A stretch of DNA of 11,667 bases from Streptosporangiaceae bacterium (GTDB lineage Bacteria > Actinomycetota > Actinomycetes > Streptosporangiales > Streptosporangiaceae), in assembly GCA_030040815.1 (NCBI GenBank), contig JASHSZ010000138.1, forward strand, positions 1-11,667. The letters run 5' to 3'. Position 1 is the stretch's first letter. Every line of letters begins with the position of its first letter. Under the pieces are notes generated by a model. That model saw nothing but the letters and a program-made list of their open reading frames with translations, made no database searches and had not been told where the DNA came from. Position numbers and translations under genes: made by a program. This document shows, in pieces, positions 1 through 9,138 of this stretch.

Positions 1-65
1 GTCGGTACTCGCAGCGGTTCACTCCATCTCGGTCATGAACCTCGGCGTTCACTTCGCCGCCCACA

Positions 66-126
66 AAGCTAAGCCCGGCGGTCATTTCCGGACACCGACG
101 GATAACCCTTGGGGGACGCGGCCGAC
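66..126 (-). promoter_or_regulatory. Promoter copy A of a four-copy regulated promoter family, driving a gene beyond the left edge
   Basis: Read on the minus strand, the proximal box is GGG-TTATCCGT-CGG (108 down to 95). A weaker distal box ends in GT-CCC (126-113). The -10 is TAGCTT at 71-66. The proximal box centre lies 30.5 bp from the first base of the -10, against 31.5 bp in the other three copies. In the other copies the start codon lies about 55-90 nt after the predicted transcription start, so the gene served here should begin at or beyond position 1. The whole element overlaps the 3' end of the glycosyltransferase-like ORF that ends at 82. The box pattern and spacing are seen directly; activator control is inferred. 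Confidence 0.65.
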
Positions 127-1512
127 CCGGCGCCAAGTTTCCGCGGTGACGGGCGCGACCGGGGCTGTCTGGGTGTCAACGCCGAGTGGCGGCTGCAGGT
201 GAGCTCGGGGTGACGTGCTGGGTTCGGTACTGGCGAGCAGGTCTACGGGCGTGATTTGTATCCGATGACGCAGGACCGCTCTCGACGGGCCGCTCCCGCT
301 GCTCGTGATGCTCACGAAACCCAGGAGCGCCGCGGGATAGACAAAATATCCCCACCGACTCGCGGGAGCCAACGTGAACAACATGGCGAGAGTGATAGCG
401 AGCCGCCACGCTGCCGCCCTGACGTCGGTTGGTGGCCAGACGACCAGTGATGCGGCCATCCCGAGCCCTACAACGCACAGAAGGCCGACTGCAGCCCACC
501 GACCCGCAAGTCCGGTGGCGGCGAGCAGGTGCCCGGGCAGCGGGCTGTCCGCACTTGTCTGGTACCTGGCCATGCCAAGCGGGAACAGCACCGTGTTCTG
601 GAACAGCGCTGCGGGCGCCGTCAGCGAGGCTGGCGCTGTCGCCGCGACGAGCGCCGTCGTGGTGATCCCGGCTGCAACCACGAACCTGGTCGCTGCCCGC
701 GCGCCGTCCCTGACCGCAAGCGTCGCGGCAAGGACCGGCATGGCGGGCCAGGCGGTGGCCTTGATGGCGCATGCCGCGCCAAGCGCGATAGCCGCCGCCA
801 GCCGTCCTCGCCGCCGGTGCGGCGCACCGGTGCACGCGAGCGCCAGGCATAGCAGTGCCAGCACCGGCGGGTCGGTGAGCCCTTGCGTCAGTGGCAGGGC
901 GAAGACCGGCGAGCCGACGGCGAACACAGTGCAGCGCATCGCGCTGCCTGGCTTTGCGAGCCGGAACGCAGCCGCGAGGACCGCTGCGGTGGTGATGCCC
1001 ATCCAGAGCCTGGGATCGCCAGCGACGCCGTGGAGGCCGACGGCCGCAGGCAAGCCGAAGACGGCCATCGCAGGCTCGTACGGGTTGTACTGCAGGACGC
1101 GCGAGATCTGATCTGCGGGCAGGTAGGGGGTGCCGTGCTGCAGGAGCTGAACCGCGGAGCGCGCTACGACCGTCAGTGAGTCCTCGCCGGACTTGGACAT
1201 GGTATGGCCGAGCGTCACTTGCCAACCCAGTGGCGCCGCAACCGCACCGGCCAGGGCTATGAGCGGCGCGGCCTCGCGGCCTCGCGACTGCCACGCCGCG
1301 GCGGTGAGCGCGGCCAGCGCGTATGCGCCACCGGCCCAGACTGCCCAGATCCACTGCAGCGGCTCGCCGGACATGGCGAAGACCAGCCCTGCGAAGCCGG
1401 CGAACGCCGCGTACCAGGCAGCGAGCTGTCCGCGGTTACTGAGGGACGCAGCGTCCGCGGCCGACGTAACCTCGCGCCGCGTCACCAGCTGACCACGGCC
1501 GACTCGATTCAT
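82..1512 (-). CDS. GT87/DUF2029-like polytopic membrane glycosyltransferase
   Basis: This encodes a protein of about 476 residues, nearly all hydrophobic helices, typical of GT-C glycosyltransferases that use polyprenyl-phosphate sugars and work on the outer face of the membrane. After the first helices, an acidic pair (E110-D111) is followed by HGTPYLP (116-122) and YNPYEPAM (132-139). These resemble the loop of DUF2029/GT87 mannosyltransferase-like proteins. Later features are GLTDPPVLALL and a KATAWPAMPVL helix, then RWGYFVYPAALLGF near the last helix. The ATG at 1512 is chosen because the reading frame upstream of it, back to 1806, lies over the ferredoxin gene and is low-complexity Ser/Ala/Arg sequence. 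An ATG at 1557 is possible. It follows the ferredoxin gene on the same strand after 94 nt, so the two may be co-transcribed. The last ~72 residues are polar, unlike the rest, and their final codons run through promoter A, so the true end of the folded protein may be near residue 405. The sugar and acceptor are unknown. Confidence 0.72.
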   Translation of the reverse strand: MNRVGRGQLVTRREVTSAADAASLSNRGQLAAWYAAFAGFAGLVFAMSGEPLQWIWAVWAGGAYALAALTAAAWQSRGREAAPLIALAGAVAAPLGWQVTLGHTMSKSGEDSLTVVARSAVQLLQHGTPYLPADQISRVLQYNPYEPAMAVFGLPAAVGLHGVAGDPRLWMGITTAAVLAAAFRLAKPGSAMRCTVFAVGSPVFALPLTQGLTDPPVLALLCLALACTGAPHRRRGRLAAAIALGAACAIKATAWPAMPVLAATLAVRDGARAATRFVVAAGITTTALVAATAPASLTAPAALFQNTVLFPLGMARYQTSADSPLPGHLLAATGLAGRWAAVGLLCVVGLGMAASLVVWPPTDVRAAAWRLAITLAMLFTLAPASRWGYFVYPAALLGFVSITSSGSGPSRAVLRHRIQITPVDLLASTEPSTSPRAHLQPPLGVDTQTAPVAPVTAETWRRVGRVPQGLSVGVRK

Positions 1513-1606
1513 GCGCGCAGTGTGGCCCTTCGACGTCGCGGCGCTGGCCGCGCGCATTCTGGCAGCCGCGTTGGGTGCGCCGCAAGTGTCGGCGCGGCTG
1601 GATGCG

Positions 1607-1927
1607 TCAGTATCGCTGAAGCGGGTGCTGTGCCACGATCGGGTGATCAGAGTGGATCTTGCCGATGCTCGAGGCGCCGCCCGGTGAGCCGAGGTAGGTG
1701 AAGAACTCGACGTTAGCCCTGAAGTAGGGCTGCAACTCGCGAGGGACGTCGCGTTCGTAGTAGATCGCCTCGACCGGGCAGACTGGCACGCAAGCCCCGC
1801 AGTCAACGCACTCGTCGGGCTGGATGTACATCATGCGCTCGCCCTCGTAGATGCAGTCGACCGGGCACTCACCGACGCAGGTCTTATCCAGCAGGTCGAT
1901 GCAGCCCTCCGTGACGATGTAGGTCAC
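1607..1927 (-). CDS. fdxA: 7Fe ferredoxin ([3Fe-4S][4Fe-4S]), FdxA-like
   Basis: A 106-residue soluble electron carrier. The Cys pattern is that of seven-iron ferredoxins. By analogy with Azotobacter FdI (offset of one residue), C9, C17 and C50 bind the [3Fe-4S] cluster and C21, C40, C43 and C46 bind the [4Fe-4S] cluster, with C25 the extra cysteine. CVGECPVDCIYEG and ECVDCGACVPVCP are visible. The C-terminal half carries the LGSPGGA segment found in actinobacterial FdxA proteins. The start is GTG at 1927, with a GAGGAG ribosome site about 9 nt upstream. It has its own promoter (copy B) about 90-150 nt upstream and a leader with two short tandem hairpins. FdxA-type ferredoxins belong to the DosR dormancy regulon in M. 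tuberculosis, which fits the promoter design seen here. The redox partner is not evident; the nearby heme membrane protein at 5173-6234 is a candidate only by proximity. Confidence 0.95.
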   Translation of the reverse strand: MTYIVTEGCIDLLDKTCVGECPVDCIYEGERMMYIQPDECVDCGACVPVCPVEAIYYERDVPRELQPYFRANVEFFTYLGSPGGASSIGKIHSDHPIVAQHPLQRY

Positions 1928-1945
1928 CTTGAGACTCTCCTCTTC

Positions 1946-1976
1946 GGGCGTATGCGCCCTTCTCGGCGTGTGCGCC
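1946..1976 (-). repeat. Two tandem short hairpins in the ferredoxin leader
   Basis: Positions 1946-1959 read GGGCG-TATG-CGCCC and 1965-1976 read GGCG-TGTG-CGCC. They are two small inverted repeats with four-base loops, about 18 nt apart and flanked by similar TCTTC/TCTC sequence. They lie between the predicted transcription start (about 2013) and the GTG at 1927, so they would be in the 5' untranslated RNA or act as an operator pair. The function is unknown. Confidence 0.4.
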
Positions 1977-2019
1977 TGTGATCCTCGGGGACGATCGAGA
2001 ACTTACTTCACCGCGGGCA

Positions 2020-2084
2020 AAGTTAGGGGCCGCCCGTCATTTCCGAACACCGACGGATACCCCTTAGGGGACGTGTGAACCCCC
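2020..2084 (-). promoter_or_regulatory. Promoter copy B, upstream of the ferredoxin gene
   Basis: On the minus strand the distal box reads GGGGGT-TCACACGT-CCCC (2084-2067). The proximal box reads GGG-GTATCCGT-CGG (2063-2050), with centres 18 bp apart. The -10 is TAACTT (2025-2020), 31.5 bp from the proximal box centre. Predicted transcription starts near 2013, leaving a leader of roughly 86 nt before the ferredoxin GTG. The core 2036-2073 matches copy A (81-118) at 35 of 38 positions. Confidence 0.7.
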
Positions 2085-2241
2085 ATAGCCTCGCCAAGCT
2101 TGCGGGCACAGCCTGGCCAGTGCCTGGGTGAGTTCCCGCTGGTCAAACCGCGTTGTGCCAGCTCCTGGACCGGCGTGACCCGGCCTCGGCGCGAACGGCT
2201 GCGCTAGCACTCGGCGTGCCGAGTGAGCCGTGGATCCCCCC

Positions 2242-2305
2242 GGGGGTTTGCCGTCCCCCGAGGGTTATTGGTCCTTGCGCGAGCCGCGCTGAGCGGCCCT
2301 AGTCT
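2242..2305 (+). promoter_or_regulatory. Promoter copy C, upstream of the lipoprotein gene
   Basis: The distal box is GGG-TTTGCCGT-CCC (2244-2257, flanked by further G and C). The proximal box is GGG-TTATTGGT-CCT (2262-2275). Centres are 18 bp apart (2250.5 and 2268.5). The -10 is TAGTCT at 2300-2305, 31.5 bp from the proximal box centre. With transcription starting near 2312, the leader to the ATG at 2368 is about 56 nt. No good -35 is visible, as expected for an activator-dependent promoter whose proximal box abuts or overlaps the -35 position. Confidence 0.7.
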
Positions 2306-2367
2306 GCTTCCGGGTGCGGCCCAGTAACGGAATGACGACGTCAAGGTCATATGAAGGAGACAATGCC

Positions 2368-2925
2368 ATGCCCAACCGATGGTGGGTGGTCCCCGGCATC
2401 GCAGCCGCAGCCGTCGTTCTCGCGGCCTGCGGGAGCAGCAGCACCCCGCCCAGTTCATCATCAACGAGCAATCCGGCGGCGGCCATCGCCTCGGTTGCGA
2501 TCAAGACGATGAGTACGAGCAAGGGAACTGTGCTCGTTACTCCTAGTGGGCTCACCTTGTACTGGTTCGCCAACGACACAACGACCCAGTCGAACTGCAA
2601 CGGCTCGTGCGCCACCTACTGGAAGCCGCTCCTAGGCGAGGCAGTCGCTGCGTCTGGCACATCGCTGCCGCACGGCTTCGGGACGATCAAGCGGTCGGAC
2701 GGCGAAACGCAGATCACCTATGACGGTCACCCCCTTTACACCTACACGGGCGACACAGCGTCAGGCCAGATCAATGGGAACGGCCTCGACGCCTCGGGTG
2801 GTATGTGGTGGGCGATAACGCCAACGGGTAGTGAGCTCGGAGCGAGCGCTGCATCGTCGACTTCCGGCGGTAGCGGCTCCAGCGGTTCCGGCGGCAGCGG
2901 CTCCAGCGGTTCGGGCGGCTGGTGA
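2368..2925 (+). CDS. Secreted lipoprotein with COG4315-type repeats
   Basis: A 185-residue exported lipoprotein. A short signal peptide (MPNRWW, then a hydrophobic stretch) ends in the lipobox LAAC with the lipidated Cys at residue 21. A Ser/Pro-rich linker follows. Two copies of the Yx(F/W/Y)xxD-type repeat of COG4315/PF03640 lipoproteins are seen. The first has LYWFAND (64-70), C77, C81 and the TYWKPLLG segment. The second has a KRSDG-QITYDGHPLYTYTGD block (108-129) ending in GGMWWAI. The tail (about 160-185) is a Ser/Gly linker ending in Trp. The ATG at 2368 is preferred over a GTG at 2314 because AAGGAG (2354-2359) sits 8 nt upstream and 2314 is at the predicted transcription start. The molecular role of this family is not established. 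Promoter C drives it, and a strong hairpin follows, so it is probably a single-gene transcript. Confidence 0.9.
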   Translation: MPNRWWVVPGIAAAAVVLAACGSSSTPPSSSSTSNPAAAIASVAIKTMSTSKGTVLVTPSGLTLYWFANDTTTQSNCNGSCATYWKPLLGEAVAASGTSLPHGFGTIKRSDGETQITYDGHPLYTYTGDTASGQINGNGLDASGGMWWAITPTGSELGASAASSTSGGSGSSGSGGSGSSGSGGW

Positions 2926-2979
2926 CTTTTCAGCCAGCGCCGCGCTGAGTCAGCGGCCAGGACGCTGCTGACATCCGCC

Positions 2980-3020
2980 AGCCACAGTGCCCTGCAGGTG
3001 GCTGCAGGGCACTGTGGGCT
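2980..3020 (+). terminator. Perfect 16-bp hairpin after the lipoprotein gene
   Basis: The arm 2982-2997 (CCACAGTGCCCTGCAG) pairs perfectly with 3002-3017 around a GTGG loop (2998-3001). Two more pairs (A2980-T3020, G2981-C3019) can form past a bulged G3018. There is no T-run after it, as is common for actinobacterial terminators. It begins 55 nt after the lipoprotein stop and precedes promoter D. Confidence 0.8.
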
Positions 3021-3203
3021 GTGGGTGATATGCCTGCCTGGTTGAGCGCTGGGCACCAGCGCGCACTTGCCAGGACGTGAGGGCAAACAGGATGCTCTCC
3101 CTAGCCAGCAATCGCCGCGAGTGGCCACCAGTGCGCCCCGTGAGCAGTTCTTACCTTCCGTCACTGCTGGCACCGCATACTCATTGTTGGTCAGACCCCC
3201 CAA

Positions 3204-3265
3204 GGGTTTCTCGTCCCCTGAGAGTTTGCCGTCTCTGTGCGGTGGCAGTTCGCAGGCTCTAACTT
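3204..3265 (+). promoter_or_regulatory. Promoter copy D, upstream of the repeat protein and heme protein run
   Basis: The distal box is GGG-TTTCTCGT-CCC (3204-3217). The proximal box is AGAG-TTTGCCGT-CTCT (3221-3236), itself a clean inverted repeat. Centres are 18 bp apart (3210.5 and 3228.5). The -10 is TAACTT (3260-3265), identical to copy B and 31.5 bp from the proximal box centre. Predicted transcription starts near 3272, which rules out the GTG at 3266 as the start of the downstream gene. Confidence 0.7.
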
Positions 3266-3299
3266 GTGGCGGGTAGGGAGTTAGCTCGATCTCCAGCAT

Positions 3300-3331
3300 C
3301 GCGCCAAGGGACCACTCCTGGTTTTGGCGCG
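3300..3331 (+). promoter_or_regulatory. Leader stem-loop just before the ribosome site
   Basis: CGCGCCAA (3300-3307) pairs perfectly with TTGGCGCG (3324-3331). Inside the loop ACCA (3311-3314) can pair with TGGT (3319-3322). It lies in the predicted 5' untranslated RNA and ends 9 nt before GGAGG at 3341. It might tune translation or stabilise the message, but no riboswitch class is recognised. Confidence 0.35.
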
Positions 3332-3349
3332 CTTACTGTCGGAGGGCAC

Positions 3350-5113
3350 GTGGTCCCTAAGCACCGGAGGTCTGACGAGCCGTCGCTGGTGTCAGTGGGT
3401 GCGCCGGTGAATAGAACTGAATACGGGCCTGCTGCGTTCGGGTACGGCCCGGTTGCCAGCGCCGCGCCCCTGGCCCCGCAGGCGAGGGCCATGGCTGTCG
3501 GCAATGGCTACTCGGCGTCGAATGGTCACAGCGGCCTTGCCACCGGGCCAGGCTGGGCGGAAGGCCCGGAAGAATACTCCTGGCAGGAATGGCAGGACTG
3601 GCACGACTGGGCACCGCCGCCTGCGATGCATCCCGATCACCCGTCGGCGCCCGTACCGCGGGTCGAGTTTTCGGTGGACCATCCGTCGGGCCCCATGCCG
3701 ATTCCTCGCGCCCTCGCGGCGCCGGACCCTGCCGGCGCCGTTGGTTGGCGCGCGCCGGCGGCTCACGACCAGCTGCGTCCGCTGCCGCCTGGCCTGGACG
3801 CTGACGGCGCAGGCCCTCGAGGGTCCGCAGCGCAGGCGCCGGATGGTCCGCGGCGAACGCGCGGTTCAGGGCGGCATGCCGCCGTTATCCCGACGGGAAC
3901 CGGTGACTATGTGGCCGCCGCCGCGGCGGGTGCTGCGGCCGGTCAGATGCACCCGGATGGCGCCCGCTTCCAGCGCGAGTCTGGTCTGCCGCGCCGCGAG
4001 TCCGCAGGGTTCCAGCGTGAGCCGGGCCTGCCGCGCCGCGATGCCACCGGCTTGCAGCGTGAGCCGGGCCTGCCGCGCCGCGATGCCACCGGCTTCCAGC
4101 GTGAGCCGGGCCTGCCACGCCGCGATGCCACAGGATTGCAGCGTGAGCCGGGCCTGCCACGCCGCGATGCCGCAGGATTGCAGCGCGATACCGGGCTGCC
4201 GCGCCGCGATGCCACCGGGTTCCAGCGCGATACCGGTCTGCCCCGCCGCGACGCCACTGGCTACCAGCGGCAAGCTGGTCCCGGCTGGCAGGAGACCACC
4301 GACTACCGCCGTGAGACCGGCCCATTTGGACCCGGCCCCGGACCGGCGAACGCGCGGTACCAGAATGGGCGTTCCCCTGGCGTTTCGCTCACCAGGACCG
4401 GGCAGCTTCGCGCGCTGGCCAACGGCAGTGCCGTCCAGATTGCACAAGAGGCGCACGACGATGCCGCCGCGATCCGCGAGGCTGCCGAACTCGAAGCCGC
4501 CACGATAACCCAGCATGCGACGGGCCAGGCAGCCGCCATACGGGAGGCCGCTGAGCGGCAGGCCGCCGAGCTGCGGGCGCGGCTCGACGAGATGCTCAGC
4601 GAACTGAGCCGGATCGCCCCGTCCGCTACCGCTGGCCTCGCCGCTCCTGCGCTGCCGGCGACCGCTCCGGCGCTCCCTGGTGCCGAGCCAGGTGTCCTGA
4701 GGAGGACGCGAGCGCTGCCGACGACCGCTCCGGCGCTCCCTGGTGCCGAGCCAGGTCTACCTGGGCGGACGTCACCTCGGCCGGCCACCAAACCGACGAG
4801 GCCGGATGCCAGGCCGACTGGGCCGGCCAGGCCGAAGACAGCGACCACGGCAGGCAGGCAGGCGCGAGCGATGCGCGTCTTCACCTACGGCATCGCGGCG
4901 GCGCTCGCGCTGGCCGGCATCTCCACGGTCGTAGAAATCGGGACGCACGGATTTGATTTCTTCACCTTCAGAGAAGGCGGAACAGGCGAGACGCCGGGCA
5001 ACGTCACTGACTCGGTGTTCCTGGCTCGGCAGGCTGCCGCGGTGCACAACGCCTCAGCCCCGGCGGGGAAGCACCATAAGACCTCTGACGCGACAGCCAA
5101 GACGAGCAACTGA
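3350..5113 (+). CDS. Large repeat-containing protein with DivIVA-like coiled coil and C-terminal membrane anchor
   Basis: A 587-residue protein of unknown function. The N-terminal ~200 residues are Pro/Gly/Ala-rich and low in order. Residues 206-303 are seven tandem 14-residue units of the form GFQREPGLPRRDAT, followed by degenerate copies. Residues ~364-423 are a charged Ala/Glu-rich helix (AAAIREAAE occurs twice), likely a coiled coil similar in composition to DivIVA-type proteins. A Pro/Ala linker with two 21-residue repeats follows (~435-476). A single hydrophobic segment (~510-530) precedes a ~55-residue tail ending in GKHHK and Ser/Thr/Lys-rich sequence. The start GTG at 3350 has GGAGG (3341-3345) 4 nt upstream. 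The longer frame from GTG 3266 adds 28 residues but begins upstream of the transcription start predicted from promoter D. It is probably co-transcribed with the heme protein gene 59 nt downstream. A scaffold or organiser of the membrane complex is a guess only. Confidence 0.75.
   Translation: MVPKHRRSDEPSLVSVGAPVNRTEYGPAAFGYGPVASAAPLAPQARAMAVGNGYSASNGHSGLATGPGWAEGPEEYSWQEWQDWHDWAPPPAMHPDHPSAPVPRVEFSVDHPSGPMPIPRALAAPDPAGAVGWRAPAAHDQLRPLPPGLDADGAGPRGSAAQAPDGPRRTRGSGRHAAVIPTGTGDYVAAAAAGAAAGQMHPDGARFQRESGLPRRESAGFQREPGLPRRDATGLQREPGLPRRDATGFQREPGLPRRDATGLQREPGLPRRDAAGLQRDTGLPRRDATGFQRDTGLPRRDATGYQRQAGPGWQETTDYRRETGPFGPGPGPANARYQNGRSPGVSLTRTGQLRALANGSAVQIAQEAHDDAAAIREAAELEAATITQHATGQAAAIREAAERQAAELRARLDEMLSELSRIAPSATAGLAAPALPATAPALPGAEPGVLRRTRALPTTAPALPGAEPGLPGRTSPRPATKPTRPDARPTGPARPKTATTAGRQARAMRVFTYGIAAALALAGISTVVEIGTHGFDFFTFREGGTGETPGNVTDSVFLARQAAAVHNASAPAGKHHKTSDATAKTSN
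3965..4258 (+). repeat. Seven tandem 42-bp coding repeats
   Basis: The units run head to tail in frame with no spacers, each coding 14 residues (x-F/L-QREPGLPRRDAT). Units 2-5 are nearly identical. The first (RESGLPRRESA) and the last two (RDTGLPRRDAT) are diverged, and a degraded eighth and ninth unit follow to about 4318. The near-identity of central units suggests recent expansion, and copy number may vary between strains. Confidence 0.9.
4651..4776 (+). repeat. Two tandem 63-bp coding repeats
   Basis: 4651-4713 and 4714-4776 encode two 21-residue Pro/Ala-rich units, both containing TAPALPGAEPG. They lie between the coiled coil and the membrane anchor of the 587-residue protein and probably act as a flexible spacer. 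Confidence 0.8.
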
Positions 5114-5172
5114 ACGGCCATAGGCAAATAACGGGGTAGCAGGGCTAATCCTTTGGAAGGAGAAGCTGCGAG

Positions 5173-6234
5173 ATGGCTACTACTAGGAACTACGGGCGGG
5201 GCCAACACCCCCGCGACGCCGTAGAAACCTGGAACGAGCCCGATTCCGCCGGCACGTGGGACGAGCAAGAGGCCGTCGGCACGTGGGACGAAGAAGACCA
5301 GTGGGCGGACGTTTACCGGCCGCAGCAGCGGGCGGCTCAGCAAGGCGCAGCCGAGCGGCGCCCGGCTCAGCGAGGCGTGGATGGGGATGAGTTGCAGCCG
5401 CGGGCTAAGCGCGGCATGGACGAATGGATGGAGCGGGACTTCAAGTTCGGCGGCTCCCGAATCAAGCGGAAGACGATCGCACTTGTCCTGATAGGCGCCT
5501 TCGGGGTAGTACCCCTGTTCTTCATGCTGCCCGCGCTCGTCACGCTGAACGCGAACACCTTCAGTGTGTCGGTCGACGACACGCTGGGGACCGGCGCGGA
5601 GATCTGCCTGTTTTTGTGCCTGCTCGTCACTCCCCTGATGACGCTCACCGGGCTGCGCTGGTTCTTCCCGCTGCGGCGCTGGTTCGGCATCATGATGGCG
5701 TGCTGCGGCGTCGGCGACGGGGTTGCAGCCGGTCTCACCGATAATTTCGCGGGCGGCTTTCTCGCGAAGCTGACCGAGCACACCTTCACGCTCGTCGGAT
5801 TCGTGATGGTGCTGCTGGTCATCCCGCTCCTGCTCACGGGCAATCCCTGGGCGCAGCGCAAGCTGGGCCGGTACTGGAAGACGCTGCACAAGCTCATCTA
5901 CGTCATCTGGGGGTTCCTCTTCCTCCACCTGGCGTTGCTCGAAGGGTTCGGGTTCGAGCGCGAGAACAATGGCTCCGGGTTCGCCGGTGACGGTGACCCC
6001 ATCTTCCATCAGCGGCTGTACCAGTACTCGGCGTGCAGCCTCTTCCTGCTTACCCTCAGGCTGCCACCGGTAAAGCGGTGGATCGCCGCTCGTCAGCAGG
6101 AGGGCCGGGACTGGCTCGTCTGGCTGACGATCACGCCGATTTTCCTGCTCTTCGTGTTCGGAATGATCTTCATCATTAACGAAGAGTTCTTCAAGGGAAT
6201 CAACTCCTTCGACGAGACCCCCAGCAACGAGTAA
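5173..6234 (+). CDS. MsrQ/ferric-reductase-like heme b membrane protein
   Basis: A 353-residue membrane protein of the ferric-reductase-like transmembrane domain family (PF01794, MsrQ/YedZ branch). The first ~95 residues are a polar cytoplasmic-type extension with three TWDE-like repeats (TWNEP, TWDEQ, TWDEE at 19-41). About six or seven helices follow, starting at ~101, 143, 172, 205, 241, 283 and 315. The segment LGRYWKTLHKLIY...LHLALLEG holds H239 and H252, 13 residues apart as in the two conserved distal heme ligands of E. coli MsrQ. The histidine expected 14 residues after the first Arg of the LRRWFG motif is replaced by D182 in my alignment, so heme ligation may differ; H203 is a possible substitute. 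The ATG at 5173 has AAGGAG (5157-5162) 10 nt upstream. No MsrP-like molybdoenzyme gene is nearby, so methionine sulfoxide repair is not supported. Electron transfer across the membrane is the safer reading. Confidence 0.8.
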   Translation: MATTRNYGRGQHPRDAVETWNEPDSAGTWDEQEAVGTWDEEDQWADVYRPQQRAAQQGAAERRPAQRGVDGDELQPRAKRGMDEWMERDFKFGGSRIKRKTIALVLIGAFGVVPLFFMLPALVTLNANTFSVSVDDTLGTGAEICLFLCLLVTPLMTLTGLRWFFPLRRWFGIMMACCGVGDGVAAGLTDNFAGGFLAKLTEHTFTLVGFVMVLLVIPLLLTGNPWAQRKLGRYWKTLHKLIYVIWGFLFLHLALLEGFGFERENNGSGFAGDGDPIFHQRLYQYSACSLFLLTLRLPPVKRWIAARQQEGRDWLVWLTITPIFLLFVFGMIFIINEEFFKGINSFDETPSNE

Positions 6235-6330
6235 GGCAGCGGCCGCTACGACGCGGGCGCCTGGGCCAGCCGACGCTTCACCACGTCTGGTGCTGCTCTA
6301 GGCGAACAGGCCAGGAGTAGGGAGAGGGAT

Positions 6331-6984
6331 GTGACGAGCTATTCGTACGCCAGAGGCGAAGAGCCCTCGACGTTCGCTGGGGGCGTCATACTGGCGATTG
6401 CTGCCTCCCTGGCCACTATCTTGGTGATCGCGGGCCTCGTCTACGCCGCGGGTACTCCCGCGCGTCACCAACGCGCGCTTGCCGCCGCAGGGTGCGAGCC
6501 TAACCTGTCGCCCAACGGACTGGCGTGCACTACCGTGTGGCAACTGGAAGGGCGATGGACGGCGCTTACGACTTCGGCCCTGGGGCAACTGAATACTGAT
6601 GCGGCCAACTACGCCGCCAACGAATTTAGCAACCTCGCCGCGGCTGAAGCCGCCCTAAATGCGGAACTGACAACCGCGAAGGTCTTGGATGCCAAACTGG
6701 CGGTATTCCCATTCCCGCCCGATGTCGCTGGCCGAGCCAATGCGCTCGTAAAGGCCATCGGGGCCAGGGTCACGCTGATCGCCGAGCAGGCCAAGTCGTC
6801 TTCACTCGCCCAACTGCGGTCGTTCGACGCCCAGATTGACGCTGACGGCGCTGTCATCCAGAAGAACATGAACCTCGTCCGCGCGATTTTGTACATCCGA
6901 CCTACTGCGGCGCAAGAGCCGATCGGCGGATCCTGCGGAGGGGTTTGCCCTGGTCAGGGAGTGCAGCCCATAGGCAACCCATAG
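6331..6984 (+). CDS. Single-pass membrane protein with extracytoplasmic helical domain, unknown function
   Basis: A 217-residue protein I do not recognise. A short cytoplasmic N-terminus is followed by one membrane helix (~17-40). The outside domain has C55 and C66, then a long Ala-rich helical stretch (about 85-190, with NEFSNLAAAEAALNAEL and FDAQIDADGAVIQKNMNL). It ends in a tail with a CGGVC pair (C202 and C206). The four outside cysteines could form disulfides or a redox-active pair. The start is GTG at 6331, with AGGGAGAGGG immediately upstream (6319-6328). The gap from the heme protein gene is 96 nt with no convincing terminator, so it is probably the third gene under promoter D. Base composition is slightly less GC-rich than its neighbours. 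Confidence 0.75.
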   Translation: MTSYSYARGEEPSTFAGGVILAIAASLATILVIAGLVYAAGTPARHQRALAAAGCEPNLSPNGLACTTVWQLEGRWTALTTSALGQLNTDAANYAANEFSNLAAAEAALNAELTTAKVLDAKLAVFPFPPDVAGRANALVKAIGARVTLIAEQAKSSSLAQLRSFDAQIDADGAVIQKNMNLVRAILYIRPTAAQEPIGGSCGGVCPGQGVQPIGNP

Positions 6985-7503
6985 GCGATTGATTCGCCGC
7001 CGAAGCTCAGGTCGCGACCGACCGCCAGGCGCGACCCGAGCGTACGGGGGAGCCGTCCCGGCCCAGGCGCAGTGGCCTGAGGAGTTTGCGCCGATCCGGG
7101 TTGCCGCGACGCTTAGCAGCACTATCTGTCGGCAAGCGCGCACTGGCGCTGCCGCCGTGCTCGACCGCCCGGCGCACCCTAGGCCTGATCTGGACAGGCG
7201 CCTTGGACCGCGGTGTTGCCACGGCGAGGCCCGGGGTGGGTATCTCGGCCTCGGGCACGGCCGCGGCGATACCTCGGTCCGAGAGCGCAGCGCGGCCCGT
7301 TCCCCAAAAAGTGGTGGCAGTCACGTGGCCGCGTGCCGACCACGGCTGCTCGCCGGGGACTTCTCCGCGCGGCGACCAGGCTGCCGCCTCAAGGCCAGCC
7401 GCCAGCACGCGGCAGCCCTGCGGGGGCCGAGGGCGCGAGCGGTTGAAGGGACCTAGGCCAGACATTTAGCCTGGGCCTGGCAGATTCGGAACTAAAGCGG
7501 CAG
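6985..7503 (+). other. About 500 bases with no supported gene
   Basis: Frames are open on both strands over parts of this stretch (for example plus 7086-7469 and minus 7007-7465), but none has a ribosome site, recognisable motifs or natural-looking composition; they read as Arg/Ala/Pro/Gly-rich translations of GC-rich DNA. A small GGCGA-TTGAT-TCGCC inverted repeat at 6984-6998, right at the stop of the preceding gene, could be a weak terminator. The promoter of the amidohydrolase gene is presumably near the right end but I cannot point to it. Confidence 0.45.
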
Positions 7504-8745
7504 GTGATACCGATCGCGATAGACGTGGTGGAACAGGCCGGCTTGCTCGGCGGAGATCTGGCCGAGTTGCGGCACGCACTGCACCGCGAGCCGGAGGTCG
7601 GGCTGCACCTGCCCGGCACCCAGCAGCGGGTTCTCGGCGCACTCGGCGGCCTTCCGCTGGAGATCACCACCGGCAGCACGCTGACGTCGGTGACCGGTGT
7701 GCTGCGCGGAGCCCGGCCCGGCCCGGTAGTGCTGCTGCGCGGGGACATGGACGCGCTGCAGATCGAGGAGAAGACCGTGGTGCCCTACCGGGCCACGACT
7801 GACGCCGCGATGCACGCATGTGGCCATGACCTGCACACCGCCATGCTCGTGGGCGCCGCCCATCTTTTGGCGCAGGCCCGCAATGAGCTGGCCGGCAGCG
7901 TCATCTTCATGTTCCAGCCGGGTGAGGAGGCCTGCGACGGCGCGGGTCACATGATCGCCGAGGGGGTCCTGGACGCGGCTGGTGACCGCCCCATCGCCGC
8001 GTACGCACTGCACGTCATGTCGGCGGGATACCCGCACGGCACCTTCGTCACCCGGCCCGGGCCGATGCTGGCGGCGTCAGACGCCCTGGGCGTACGCGTC
8101 CGCGGGGTCGGTGGCCATGGGTCCGCGCCGCACCTGGCCCGCGATCCCGTGATGGCCGCCTGCGAGATGGCGCTGGCCCTGCAGACCTACATGACGCGCG
8201 GCATCGACCCGCTGGAACCGGCCGTGCTGACCGTGGGCTCTTTCCACGCTGGCACCCGGCGCAATGTCATACCCGAGACGGCGAGCTTCGATGCGACCGT
8301 CCGCACCTTTTCCCAGGAGGTCCGGGACAAGGTCGCGAGGGAGACAGTCCGGGTATGCGAAGGCATCGCCGCCGCGCACGGCCTGGACGTGGATGCCGTG
8401 TACAGCCAGGAGTACCCCGTCACCGTCAATGACGAGGCCGAGGCGGCGTTCGCGGCGCAGACCGTCGCAGCGCTGTTCGGCGGCGACGCGTTCACGCCGA
8501 TGGCCAGGCCGGTGACCGGCGCCGAGGACTTCTCCCGGATCCTCGCCGAGGTGCCAGGCGCGATGGTGTTCCTCGGCGCGACGCCGCCTGGCGAGGACTA
8601 CATCGGGGCGGCGTTCAACCACTCTCAATACGCCACGTTCGACGATGGGGTGCTCAGCGCGGGAGCCGCGCTGTACGCCGGGCTGGCGCTCCGTCGTCTT
8701 GCCGCGGCCGTCAACACTCACGACACCCACGAAGGACGTGCATGA
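7504..8745 (+). CDS. M20D-family metal-dependent amidohydrolase (aminoacylase/carboxypeptidase type)
   Basis: A 413-residue cytosolic hydrolase of the M20D/AmhX-like family, which cleaves N-acyl amino acids, hippurate-like amides or small peptides with a di-metal centre. Visible motifs are LRHALHREPEVG (22-33), LLRGDMDALQIEE (77-89), MHACGHDLHTAML (103-115) with C106 and H108 as metal ligands and H111, and FQPGEE (137-142) with the catalytic and ligand Glu pair. H170 in ALHVM, the dimerisation-domain GGHGSAPH (203-210) and FNHSQ with H373 complete the set. All expected ligands are present and the length is normal, so the enzyme looks active. The start is GTG at 7504, giving an N-terminus close to family members; the ribosome site is weak. 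Its stop overlaps the ATG of a broken S9 peptidase gene by ATGA, suggesting a former peptide- or amide-degrading operon. The exact substrate cannot be read from the sequence. Confidence 0.92.
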   Translation: MIPIAIDVVEQAGLLGGDLAELRHALHREPEVGLHLPGTQQRVLGALGGLPLEITTGSTLTSVTGVLRGARPGPVVLLRGDMDALQIEEKTVVPYRATTDAAMHACGHDLHTAMLVGAAHLLAQARNELAGSVIFMFQPGEEACDGAGHMIAEGVLDAAGDRPIAAYALHVMSAGYPHGTFVTRPGPMLAASDALGVRVRGVGGHGSAPHLARDPVMAACEMALALQTYMTRGIDPLEPAVLTVGSFHAGTRRNVIPETASFDATVRTFSQEVRDKVARETVRVCEGIAAAHGLDVDAVYSQEYPVTVNDEAEAAFAAQTVAALFGGDAFTPMARPVTGAEDFSRILAEVPGAMVFLGATPPGEDYIGAAFNHSQYATFDDGVLSAGAALYAGLALRRLAAAVNTHDTHEGRA

Positions 8746-9138
8746 GCGAGGTCACGGCGGCGTCGGCCGTCATGAGTCCGGTGCAGCGCCGGGTACAGCG
8801 AGCAGTGGGGCCGGGCCATCAGGAGGCCCGAGTCCGCACATGACCCCGGCACCGGCTGGGGCAGCGTGGACTTCGCGGACGTGATGGCGTGCGCAGAAAC
8901 CGCGTGCCAGCGATTCAGCTGGATCGACCGGGACCGGATCGGCATCCTCCGCGGCTCCTACGGCGGGTTCATGACCTCATGGGCCATCGGTCACACGTTG
9001 CTGAGCGGATATCAGCCGCGGTCCATCCGCGTGCGCGGCGGGCGGAAGCTGAGTCATCTGCCCGTACGGACCAGCCGATGGGGTTCCTGTCGTGTTCTTC
9101 TACGGGACGCCGGCACGATGTTCCTGGCCCAGGCTTAA
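8742..9138 (+). pseudogene. Remnant of an S9 (prolyl oligopeptidase-like) peptidase gene
   Basis: An ATG at 8742 overlaps the amidohydrolase stop and opens a short frame (MSEVTAASAVMS..., 33 codons). From about 8776, in another frame, the sequence matches the catalytic domain of S9 peptidases: RCSAGYSEQWGRAIRRPES (normally PRGSxGYSE), then DPGTGWGSVDFADVM, WIDRDRIGI, and the nucleophile motif RGSYGGFMTSW with its serine kept (normally GGSYGGFMTSW). After IGHT (8997) the frame is lost. ERISAAV in the next frame continues the match briefly, then similarity fades. The β-propeller half (expected more than 1 kb) and the Asp and His of the triad are missing. This is an internal deletion plus at least one indel, so not functional. 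Confidence 0.85.

What the first reader, a model, noticed from the sequence alone, without database searches (positions are those of the whole stretch)
66..3265. Four promoters share tandem GGG-N8-CCC boxes and a fixed-distance -10: a local regulon with DevR/DosR-like architecture
Seen directly: at 66-126 (-), 2020-2084 (-), 2242-2305 (+) and 3204-3265 (+) there are paired boxes GGG-N8-CCC, the N8 ending in GT, with centres 18 bp apart. A TANNNT hexamer (TAGCTT, TAACTT, TAGTCT, TAACTT) starts 31.5 bp from the proximal box centre in three copies and 30.5 bp in the fourth. The left half of the distal box is weak in copy A. This puts the proximal box around -43, next to or overlapping the -35, as for a class II activator. 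Known: DosR/DevR binds palindromes around GGGACTWWAGTCCC, often as tandem pairs, and M. tuberculosis fdxA is in its regulon. Here the GGG...GTCCC frame is kept but the inner AC is TT. Inferred: a NarL/LuxR-type response regulator switches on the ferredoxin, a COG4315 lipoprotein, the repeat/heme operon and an off-window gene under low oxygen, NO or redox stress.
Basis: partly seen in the sequence, partly recalled or inferred. Interest (0 to 1): 0.82.

Follow-up and report, generated by a model that had tools for sequence, protein, structure and literature searches.

The report
Redox gene cluster's shared promoter switch
Four promoters in this soil-bacterium DNA carry the same paired control boxes, kept in related genomes beside an unusual two-headed DNA-binding regulator that probably switches the cluster on; it resembles, but probably is not, the tuberculosis dormancy switch.

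Summary
The four sites are real. Each holds a GTCCCCYRAGRGNTWYYSGTC unit in an 18-bp repeat, with TANNNT 46-47 bp from its start. A matrix built only from relatives scores them 24.6-33.6, against at most 15.0 in 200 shuffles. In Streptosporangiaceae MAGs the boxes stand before the orthologous fdxA paralogue, PF03640 lipoprotein and rep-heme-orf217 genes. 24 of 27 relatives' sites keep the -10 at that distance. Exact matches: 16, in 9 of 80 genomes, reversed control 0.

The regulator is probably not DosR. The left arm lacks the inner C of DosR/OsdR boxes (0 of 31 proximal boxes). The nine motif genomes all encode a NarL-type protein with two REC-HTH modules, here dLuxR (one seen only as a contig-end fragment), usually in or beside the cluster. 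Its receivers look degenerate, and DosR's essential K182 is Glu in both HTHs.

Best reading: a small, local, class II-type regulon run by dLuxR. In the closest relative a box precedes dLuxR where window site A points off-window. Low oxygen or NO as signal is untested. Asymmetric half-sites read by two different HTHs is the bold part.

The parts
66..135 (-). Site A: boxes 95-126 (proximal unit 97-117), -10 TAGCTT 66-71; reads out of the window to the left
   Evidence: In the closest relative G001 (L017) the equivalent place after GT87 has a site (+4258) and then dLuxR 4515-5876; in G003 and G173 it precedes a TetR gene. The target in this genome is not visible. The site overlaps the 3' tail of the GT87 ORF, a tail that the BLAST match to relatives does not cover.
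2020..2090 (-). Site B: boxes 2050-2081 (proximal unit 2052-2072), -10 TAACTT 2020-2025; promoter of fdxA paralogue
   Evidence: orthologous sites before fdx in G001, G003, G004, G173, G128
2235..2305 (+). Site C: boxes 2244-2275 (proximal unit 2253-2273), -10 TAGTCT 2300-2305; promoter of the lipoprotein gene
   Evidence: orthologous sites before lipo in G001, G003, G004, G005, G162, G173, G128
3195..3265 (+). Site D: boxes 3204-3235 (proximal unit 3213-3233), -10 TAACTT 3260-3265; promoter of the rep-heme-orf217 operon
   Evidence: orthologous sites before rep in G001, G003, G002, G162, G173, G128, G039; degenerate in G004
1607..1927 (-). fdxA-type ferredoxin, a cluster-specific paralogue
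   Evidence: NF045480 FdxA_Actino above cut-off. In G001, G003, G004, G128 and G173 the cluster copy is 77-90% identical and has a box; a second copy elsewhere is 70-73% identical and has none, best matrix score within its locus 1.9
2368..2925 (+). PF03640 (COG4315-type) lipoprotein; likely start ATG 2368 with lipobox LAAC
   Evidence: Pfam E 1.1e-27 for the 2314-2925 ORF; start judged by eye
3350..5113 (+). rep: repeat/low-complexity protein with a C-terminal stretch that looks membrane-spanning; likely start GTG 3350
   Evidence: Start by similarity to MVPKHRRS... in relatives; 42-bp tandem repeat 3968-4269; no Pfam hit; membrane stretch by eye
5173..6234 (+). heme-type membrane protein, ferric-reductase/MsrQ-like
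   Evidence: PF01794 above cut-off; NF003831 MsrQ below cut-off; 1364 homologues
6331..6984 (+). orf217, conserved last gene of the operon
   Evidence: Conserved after heme in G001, G003, G004, G005 and G169; no Pfam hit
82..1512 (-). GT87-like membrane glycosyltransferase downstream of fdx
   Evidence: PF09594; conserved after fdx in L017, L020, L021, L060, L061

Best explanation
The four sites are activator boxes of a small, clade-specific regulon. Its regulator is most likely dLuxR, a NarL/LuxR-family protein made of two fused receiver-HTH modules (REC1-HTH1-REC2-HTH2) encoded in or beside the cluster in relatives and expected off-window here. dLuxR binds the 18-bp-repeated boxes centred near -43.5 and -61.5 and contacts RNA polymerase at a promoter with a weak -35 and a TANNNT -10 (class II-like). 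It turns on an fdxA paralogue, a PF03640 lipoprotein, the rep-heme membrane operon and, through site A, probably a regulator gene (dLuxR itself, as in the closest relative, or a TetR, as in two others). Shown by sequence: boxes, spacing, conservation, linkage, co-occurrence, domain layout. Inferred: binding, activation, autoregulation. Unknown: the signal. The receivers lack most phosphorylation-pocket residues, so ligand, partner or concentration control is likelier than a sensor kinase.
For: Sites: window scores against shuffles. 24 of 27 relatives' sites, found by their boxes, have TANNNT at 46 or 47; the same test at upstream offsets succeeds in 10 of 2970. Exact motif: 16 matches in 9 of 80 genomes, reversed control 0; 15 lie before fdx, lipo, rep or TetR genes and one just downstream of dLuxR (loci). 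Paralogue contrast: in five genomes the cluster fdxA has a box and the second fdxA has none. Regulator: 11 of 295 family genomes have dLuxR at E<=1e-100, next best 2.8e-74. They include 8 of the 9 genomes with exact motif among 297; the ninth, G162, has a contig-end dLuxR fragment beside lipo (E 3e-24 in a one-to-one comparison). Linkage: dLuxR shares a contig with cluster genes in 8 of the 12 genomes that have it (G001, G003, G004, G005, G128, G162, G169, G173); in G002 and G039 it is next to a box, in G044 next to a variant array of 18-bp units. A site precedes dLuxR in G001. Genus contrast: of 9 genomes, the 6 with motif have dLuxR; G028, G081, G147 have neither. Two GerE domains; REC-HTH-REC-HTH order (pLDDT 70.8); PDB relatives NarL and DevR.
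Against: No binding or expression data. The window holds no dLuxR gene, and no whole genome is held for it. Co-occurrence is within one clade, so shared ancestry inflates any p value. G033, G169 and G044 have dLuxR but no exact motif (G169's rep promoter is not on the contig; G044 has a variant array). G033's dLuxR is unlinked, and the second dLuxR of G173 (L095) has no site nearby. The G004 rep site is degenerate; G001 fdx lacks TANNNT. Among the dLuxR loci scanned, a box reads toward dLuxR only in G001; in G004, G005 and G162 dLuxR is divergent from the boxed lipo promoter, and in G002 and G039 the box lies downstream of dLuxR.
Confidence: 0.72

Rival explanations
1. A genuine DosR/DevR/OsdR orthologue elsewhere in the genome binds these as degenerate Dev boxes and switches the genes on in low oxygen or NO.
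For: Same GGG-N8-CCC frame and GTCCC right arm; OsdR consensus AGGGCCGATCGGCCCT. DevR targets have closely packed sites, the proximal one overlapping the -35. Mtb fdxA is in the DosR regulon, and the printed hspX probe holds GGGTCAATGGTCCC. The OsdR list contains USPs, a protoporphyrinogen oxidase with chlorite dismutase, and a lipoprotein, and one box here precedes hemY-hemQ in G002.
Against: The inner C of the left arm is absent in 31 of 31 proximal boxes, though present in 5 of 31 distal ones. OsdR-type palindromes are not enriched over the reversed control in 10 genomes. A different regulator is linked to the boxes. Exact motifs were found only in genomes with dLuxR.
Confidence: 0.13
2. 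Another cluster-linked regulator, such as the TetR of G003 and G173 or an unlinked factor, reads the boxes, and dLuxR is only a neighbour.
For: A boxed promoter precedes a TetR gene in G003 and G173. Window site A's leader aligns about as well to the TetR leader of G173 (score 75) as to the dLuxR leader of G001 (score 74); G003 scores 62.
Against: I noticed no TetR gene behind a box in the ORF lists of the other cluster contigs (by eye; no systematic search); dLuxR is in all nine motif genomes. Tandem half-sites at class II position are untypical of TetR repressors (general knowledge).
Confidence: 0.1
3. The boxes are not protein sites but a duplicated promoter block spread by recent intergenic duplication.
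For: A and B are similar over about 65 bp.
Against: C and D differ from A and B outside the conserved columns, and the same columns are kept in orthologous promoters of other genomes whose cluster proteins are about 37-91% identical to the window's.
Confidence: 0.03

Closest known systems
DosR/DevR (M. tuberculosis) and OsdR (S. coelicolor) regulons
   Same: NarL-family HTH regulator; GGG-N8-CCC frame with GTCCC right arm; closely packed boxes, the proximal over the -35; ferredoxin FdxA among DosR targets; OsdR's predicted list also has a protoporphyrinogen oxidase/chlorite dismutase pair and a lipoprotein
   Different: Boxes asymmetric with an 18-bp repeat; the linked regulator has two REC-HTH modules, degenerate receivers and Glu at the K182 position; few sites, nearly all in one locus
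BldM and BldM-WhiI of Streptomyces (atypical NarL-type regulators)
   Same: Called atypical response regulators; the BldM-WhiI heterodimer reads a 16-bp non-palindromic site of two unlike half-sites (PMC4125116, passages)
   Different: Here two unlike HTHs are fused in one chain; sites come as repeats with 18-bp period; recognised letters differ
NarL/FixJ-type response regulators (LiaR, VraR, NarL)
   Same: REC followed by GerE HTH; best PDB matches by sequence and fold
   Different: Duplicated and fused, about 450 aa

Membership tests
DosR/DevR/OsdR regulon | Palindromic box with GGGAC or GGGCC left arm and GKCCC right arm | tested here: not met
   Left-arm position 4 is T in 27, A in 3, G in 1 and C in 0 of 31 proximal boxes; C in 5 of 31 distal boxes
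DosR/DevR/OsdR regulon | GGG-N8-CCC frame | tested here: met
   Position-by-position counts; literal in 2 of 8 window boxes
DosR/DevR/OsdR regulon | Tandem boxes, proximal one overlapping -35 | tested here: met
   Spacing; DevR feature from passages of PMC3029386; start sites not measured
DosR/DevR/OsdR regulon | Core DNA-binding residues K179, K182, N183 | tested here: not met
   dLuxR HTH1 reads L/E/N and HTH2 K/E/N by eye on the DevR alignment; residue roles from PMC5999986 passages. Tests dLuxR only
DosR/DevR/OsdR regulon | Phosphorylatable receiver and cognate sensor kinase (DevS/DosT/OsdK) | tested here: inconclusive
   REC1 keeps Asp61 but has QS for the acidic pair and Pro for Lys; REC2 looks to lack them (canonical positions recalled). 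Kinase not searched for
DosR/DevR/OsdR regulon | Induction by hypoxia, NO or CO | not testable with these tools
   No expression data
NarL/LuxR (GerE) regulators | GerE helix-turn-helix | tested here: met
   Two stretches of PF00196 in dLuxR of G001 and of G039
NarL/LuxR (GerE) regulators | N-terminal receiver fold | tested here: met
   Two (beta-alpha)5 domains in the model; Foldseek to LiaR, VraR; PF00072 found only weakly, below cut-off, in the G039 protein and not in the G001 protein
Atypical response regulators (BldM/WhiI type) | Missing phosphorylation-pocket residues | tested here: met
   judged by eye on the alignment only

The most novel reading that the evidence does not exclude
dLuxR is a single-chain 'built-in heterodimer'. 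Its two different HTHs read the two different arms of each box (GGGNTW on the left, GGGACS on the right, read inward), so one molecule covers one 14-bp box and molecules stack every 18 bp. In G044, where the DosR-K182-equivalent residue of HTH1 is Gln instead of Glu, the inner bases of the box have changed too (N8 = ATTCAGGT) in an array of about five units (one case only).
Probability: 0.3. Interest if true: 0.65.

Novelty: new variant of a known kind. Interest (0 to 1): 0.5.

Why it matters
It links a box code, a regulator of unusual architecture and a redox gene set of unknown role (ferredoxin, PF03640 lipoprotein, heme-type membrane protein) in uncultured soil actinobacteria. That gives a direct test of whether fusing two NarL-type modules lets one protein read asymmetric sites, and a handle on what PF03640 lipoproteins and this MsrQ-like protein do.

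Tried and rejected
DosR palindrome scan: fewer hits than the reversed control in all 10 genomes. OsdR/DosR orthologue by protein: not searched, as no sequence was at hand. One-mismatch hits outside the nine motif genomes (24 in 24 genomes) are close to the reversed-pattern number (27 hits), so they were treated as chance. Two mismatches in 15 genomes: 53 matches against 21 reversed (counted by eye). Other fdxA copies: 21 loci in 13 genomes, best matrix score 5.1. The [NiFe]-hydrogenase genes beside the G005 cluster have no box. Plasmid search of window 1-6300: two records, both short matches inside fdxA. A first guess that the boxed gene beside dLuxR in G039 is a multicopper oxidase was wrong: it is PF24152 (DUF7405); the label G039_MCO and in my notes is that mistake.

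Literature: searches for fused double-LuxR regulators (1, 0 and 5 papers) listed none on such a protein; searches touching this family or a DosR regulon in it (15 of 193 papers listed, 8 of 28 listed) showed none on this regulon in the rows seen. PMC5069765, PMC4125116, PMC5999986, PMC3029386 and PMC12919924 were seen as passages only; all others as search listings.

Rows left out of the 31-site table: L064 +9998 (score 27.2, inside an ORF, no -10), L101 +2956 (15.3) and L063 -19225 (13.5), G002:C388 (L019 -8259, score 17.0, inside ORFs, no -10 at the place), loose-pattern hits away from these promoters (not checked one by one), distal-register hits of the same sites, and the G044 array. The G004 rep site was put in register by hand. 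The -10 was not used to find sites, but the table was assembled by me.
Full report
What the window is. The closest relatives found are uncultured Streptosporangiaceae MAGs; no whole genome is held for the window. Gene order is GT87 (-), fdxA-type ferredoxin (-), PF03640 lipoprotein (+), a repeat protein 'rep' (+), a ferric-reductase/MsrQ-like membrane protein (+) and orf217 (+).

The observation. All four sites are present with the stated spacing. The pattern GGG-N8-CCC is literal in 2 of 8 boxes; the element actually conserved is GTCCCCYRAGRGNTWYYSGTC, repeated with an 18-bp period and followed by TANNNT 46 or 47 bp from its start. A weight matrix made from 25 sites of relatives, window excluded, gives the four sites 33.6, 32.2, 31.8 and 24.6; the best score in 200 dinucleotide shuffles of the window is 15.0.

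Conservation. Clusters with orthologous genes in other genomes carry the boxes at the same promoters: fdx in G001, G003, G004, G173, G128; lipoprotein in G001, G003, G004, G005, G162, G173, G128; rep in G001, G003, G002, G162, G173, G128, G039, with a degenerate copy in G004. Of 27 relatives' sites, 24 have TANNNT at 46 or 47; two have it at 45 (G002 rep) and 49 (G004 rep), one (G001 fdx) has none; at upstream offsets the same test succeeds in 10 of 2970. Rows left out are named under tried and rejected. Taking the hexamer start as -12, the proximal box is centred at -43.5 and its GTCCC reaches about -37, so it overlaps the -35 region, whose own letters are weakly conserved.

Paralogue contrast. 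G001, G003, G004, G128 and G173 each hold the cluster fdxA (77-90% identical to the window's) and another copy elsewhere at 70-73%; G001 has a third at 63%, and G162 showed only a 71% copy away from its cluster contig. The cluster copies' loci carry boxes (matrix scores 24.1-35.2 before fdx); the other copies' loci score at most 1.9. In 13 further genomes 21 fdxA-like loci score at most 5.1.

How local it is. The exact pattern occurs 16 times in 9 of 80 genomes, with 0 matches of the reversed pattern. Fifteen matches lie before fdx, lipo, rep or TetR genes and one lies between dLuxR and a DUF7405 gene in G039. Allowing one mismatch in 297 family genomes gave 42 matches: 15 exact and 3 one-mismatch in those nine genomes, and 24 one-mismatch hits elsewhere, close to the 27 hits of the reversed pattern (counted by eye). 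A tandem pattern with up to three mismatches in 15 genomes gave 25 matches in 10 genomes against 4 reversed; one of the 25 (G002:C388) looks like chance. It added G162:C10 and G002:C669, whose targets are unclear, and a tandem array in G044.

The regulator. In G001 a site stands before a gene for a protein with two GerE domains. A search of 295 family genomes found strong relatives (E<=1e-100) in 11, the next best being 2.8e-74. These 11 include 8 of the 9 motif genomes; in the ninth, G162, the first 63 residues lie at a contig end beside lipo (66% identity). So all nine motif genomes have it; G033, G169 and G044 have it without an exact motif. A Fisher test gives 1.1e-12 for the uniform count and 5e-15 with G162 added, but shared ancestry makes these too small. 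Within the genus of G003 (9 genomes), the six with motif have dLuxR and the three without (G028, G081, G147) have no match. The gene lies between lipo and fdx in G004, beside lipo in G005 and G162, after orf217 in G003, G169, G173 and G128, after GT87 in G001, and next to a box in G002 and G039. In G002 that box precedes hemY and hemQ; in G039 hemY follows the DUF7405 gene; in G044 a variant array of 18-bp units precedes a multicopper-oxidase-like gene. A box reads toward dLuxR only in G001.

What the regulator looks like. The model (mean pLDDT 70.8, pTM 0.35, so domain order but not arrangement) shows REC-HTH-REC-HTH; Foldseek's best matches are LiaR, VraR and other NarL-type regulators, and by sequence NarL and DevR lead. 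In 22 homologues REC1 keeps Asp61 but has Gln-Ser where canonical receivers have the acidic pair and Pro where they have Lys; REC2 seems to keep none of these (by eye; canonical positions from general knowledge). The recognition helices read mostly SPLTVEN (some SPLTVDN) and APKTVEN, so DosR K179/K182/N183 become L/E or D/N and K/E/N (residue roles from passages of PMC5999986).

DosR or not. The frame and right arm agree with DosR/OsdR, and class II tandem placement is reported for DevR. But the left arm is GGGNTW: position 4 is never C in 31 proximal boxes, while GTC on the right is nearly fixed. Natural DosR boxes are themselves degenerate (the printed hspX probe holds GGGTCAATGGTCCC), so this lowers DosR rather than excluding it. 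The asymmetry resembles the BldM-WhiI heterodimer site (PMC4125116). The bold reading is that dLuxR is such a heterodimer in one chain.

Site A. In G001 its counterpart precedes dLuxR; in G003 and G173 a TetR gene. Window A's leader aligns about equally to G001 and G173 (scores 74 and 75; 62 for G003). G001 is the closest relative by the cluster proteins compared (fdx 91%, lipo 79%), and neither it nor the window has dLuxR in the fdx-lipo gap. I therefore put the dLuxR target at about 0.6.

Function. Ferredoxin, heme-type membrane protein, lipoprotein, hemYQ and (in one relative) a multicopper-oxidase-like protein point to redox or heme work, but the stimulus is unknown, and low oxygen is only one candidate.

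Noticed in passing
L098 (G002) 1035-7278: dLuxR, a box and then hemY and hemQ, with hemE upstream: a heme biosynthesis locus. OsdR's predicted list also holds a protoporphyrinogen oxidase/chlorite dismutase pair.
   Followed up: partly
L062 (G039) 8406-13234: dLuxR, a tandem box, a DUF7405 (PF24152) protein gene and hemY in a row.
   Followed up: partly
L100 (G044) about 2005-2090: Tandem array of 18-bp units (GTCCCCTAGGGGATTCAG type) between dLuxR and a multicopper-oxidase-like gene.
   Followed up: partly
L022 (G005) 1-8786: [NiFe]-hydrogenase small subunit and HypD confirmed by Pfam, with other hyp-like ORFs beside the lipo-rep-heme cluster; no boxes before them.
   Followed up: partly
L021 (G004) 14613-15077: Universal stress protein gene (PF00582) just after GT87; no box found before it.
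   Followed up: partly
window 3968-4269: 42-bp tandem repeat, 7.2 copies, inside rep, coding a QREPGLPRRDATG-type repeat.
   Followed up: no
window 8866-9138: Short Peptidase_S9 fragment (PF00326), likely a gene remnant.
   Followed up: no
L079-L087 and L090-L093: More distant proteins (about 40% identity) matching mostly HTH1-REC2-HTH2 of dLuxR in other family genomes; some frames hold TGA stops.
   Followed up: no
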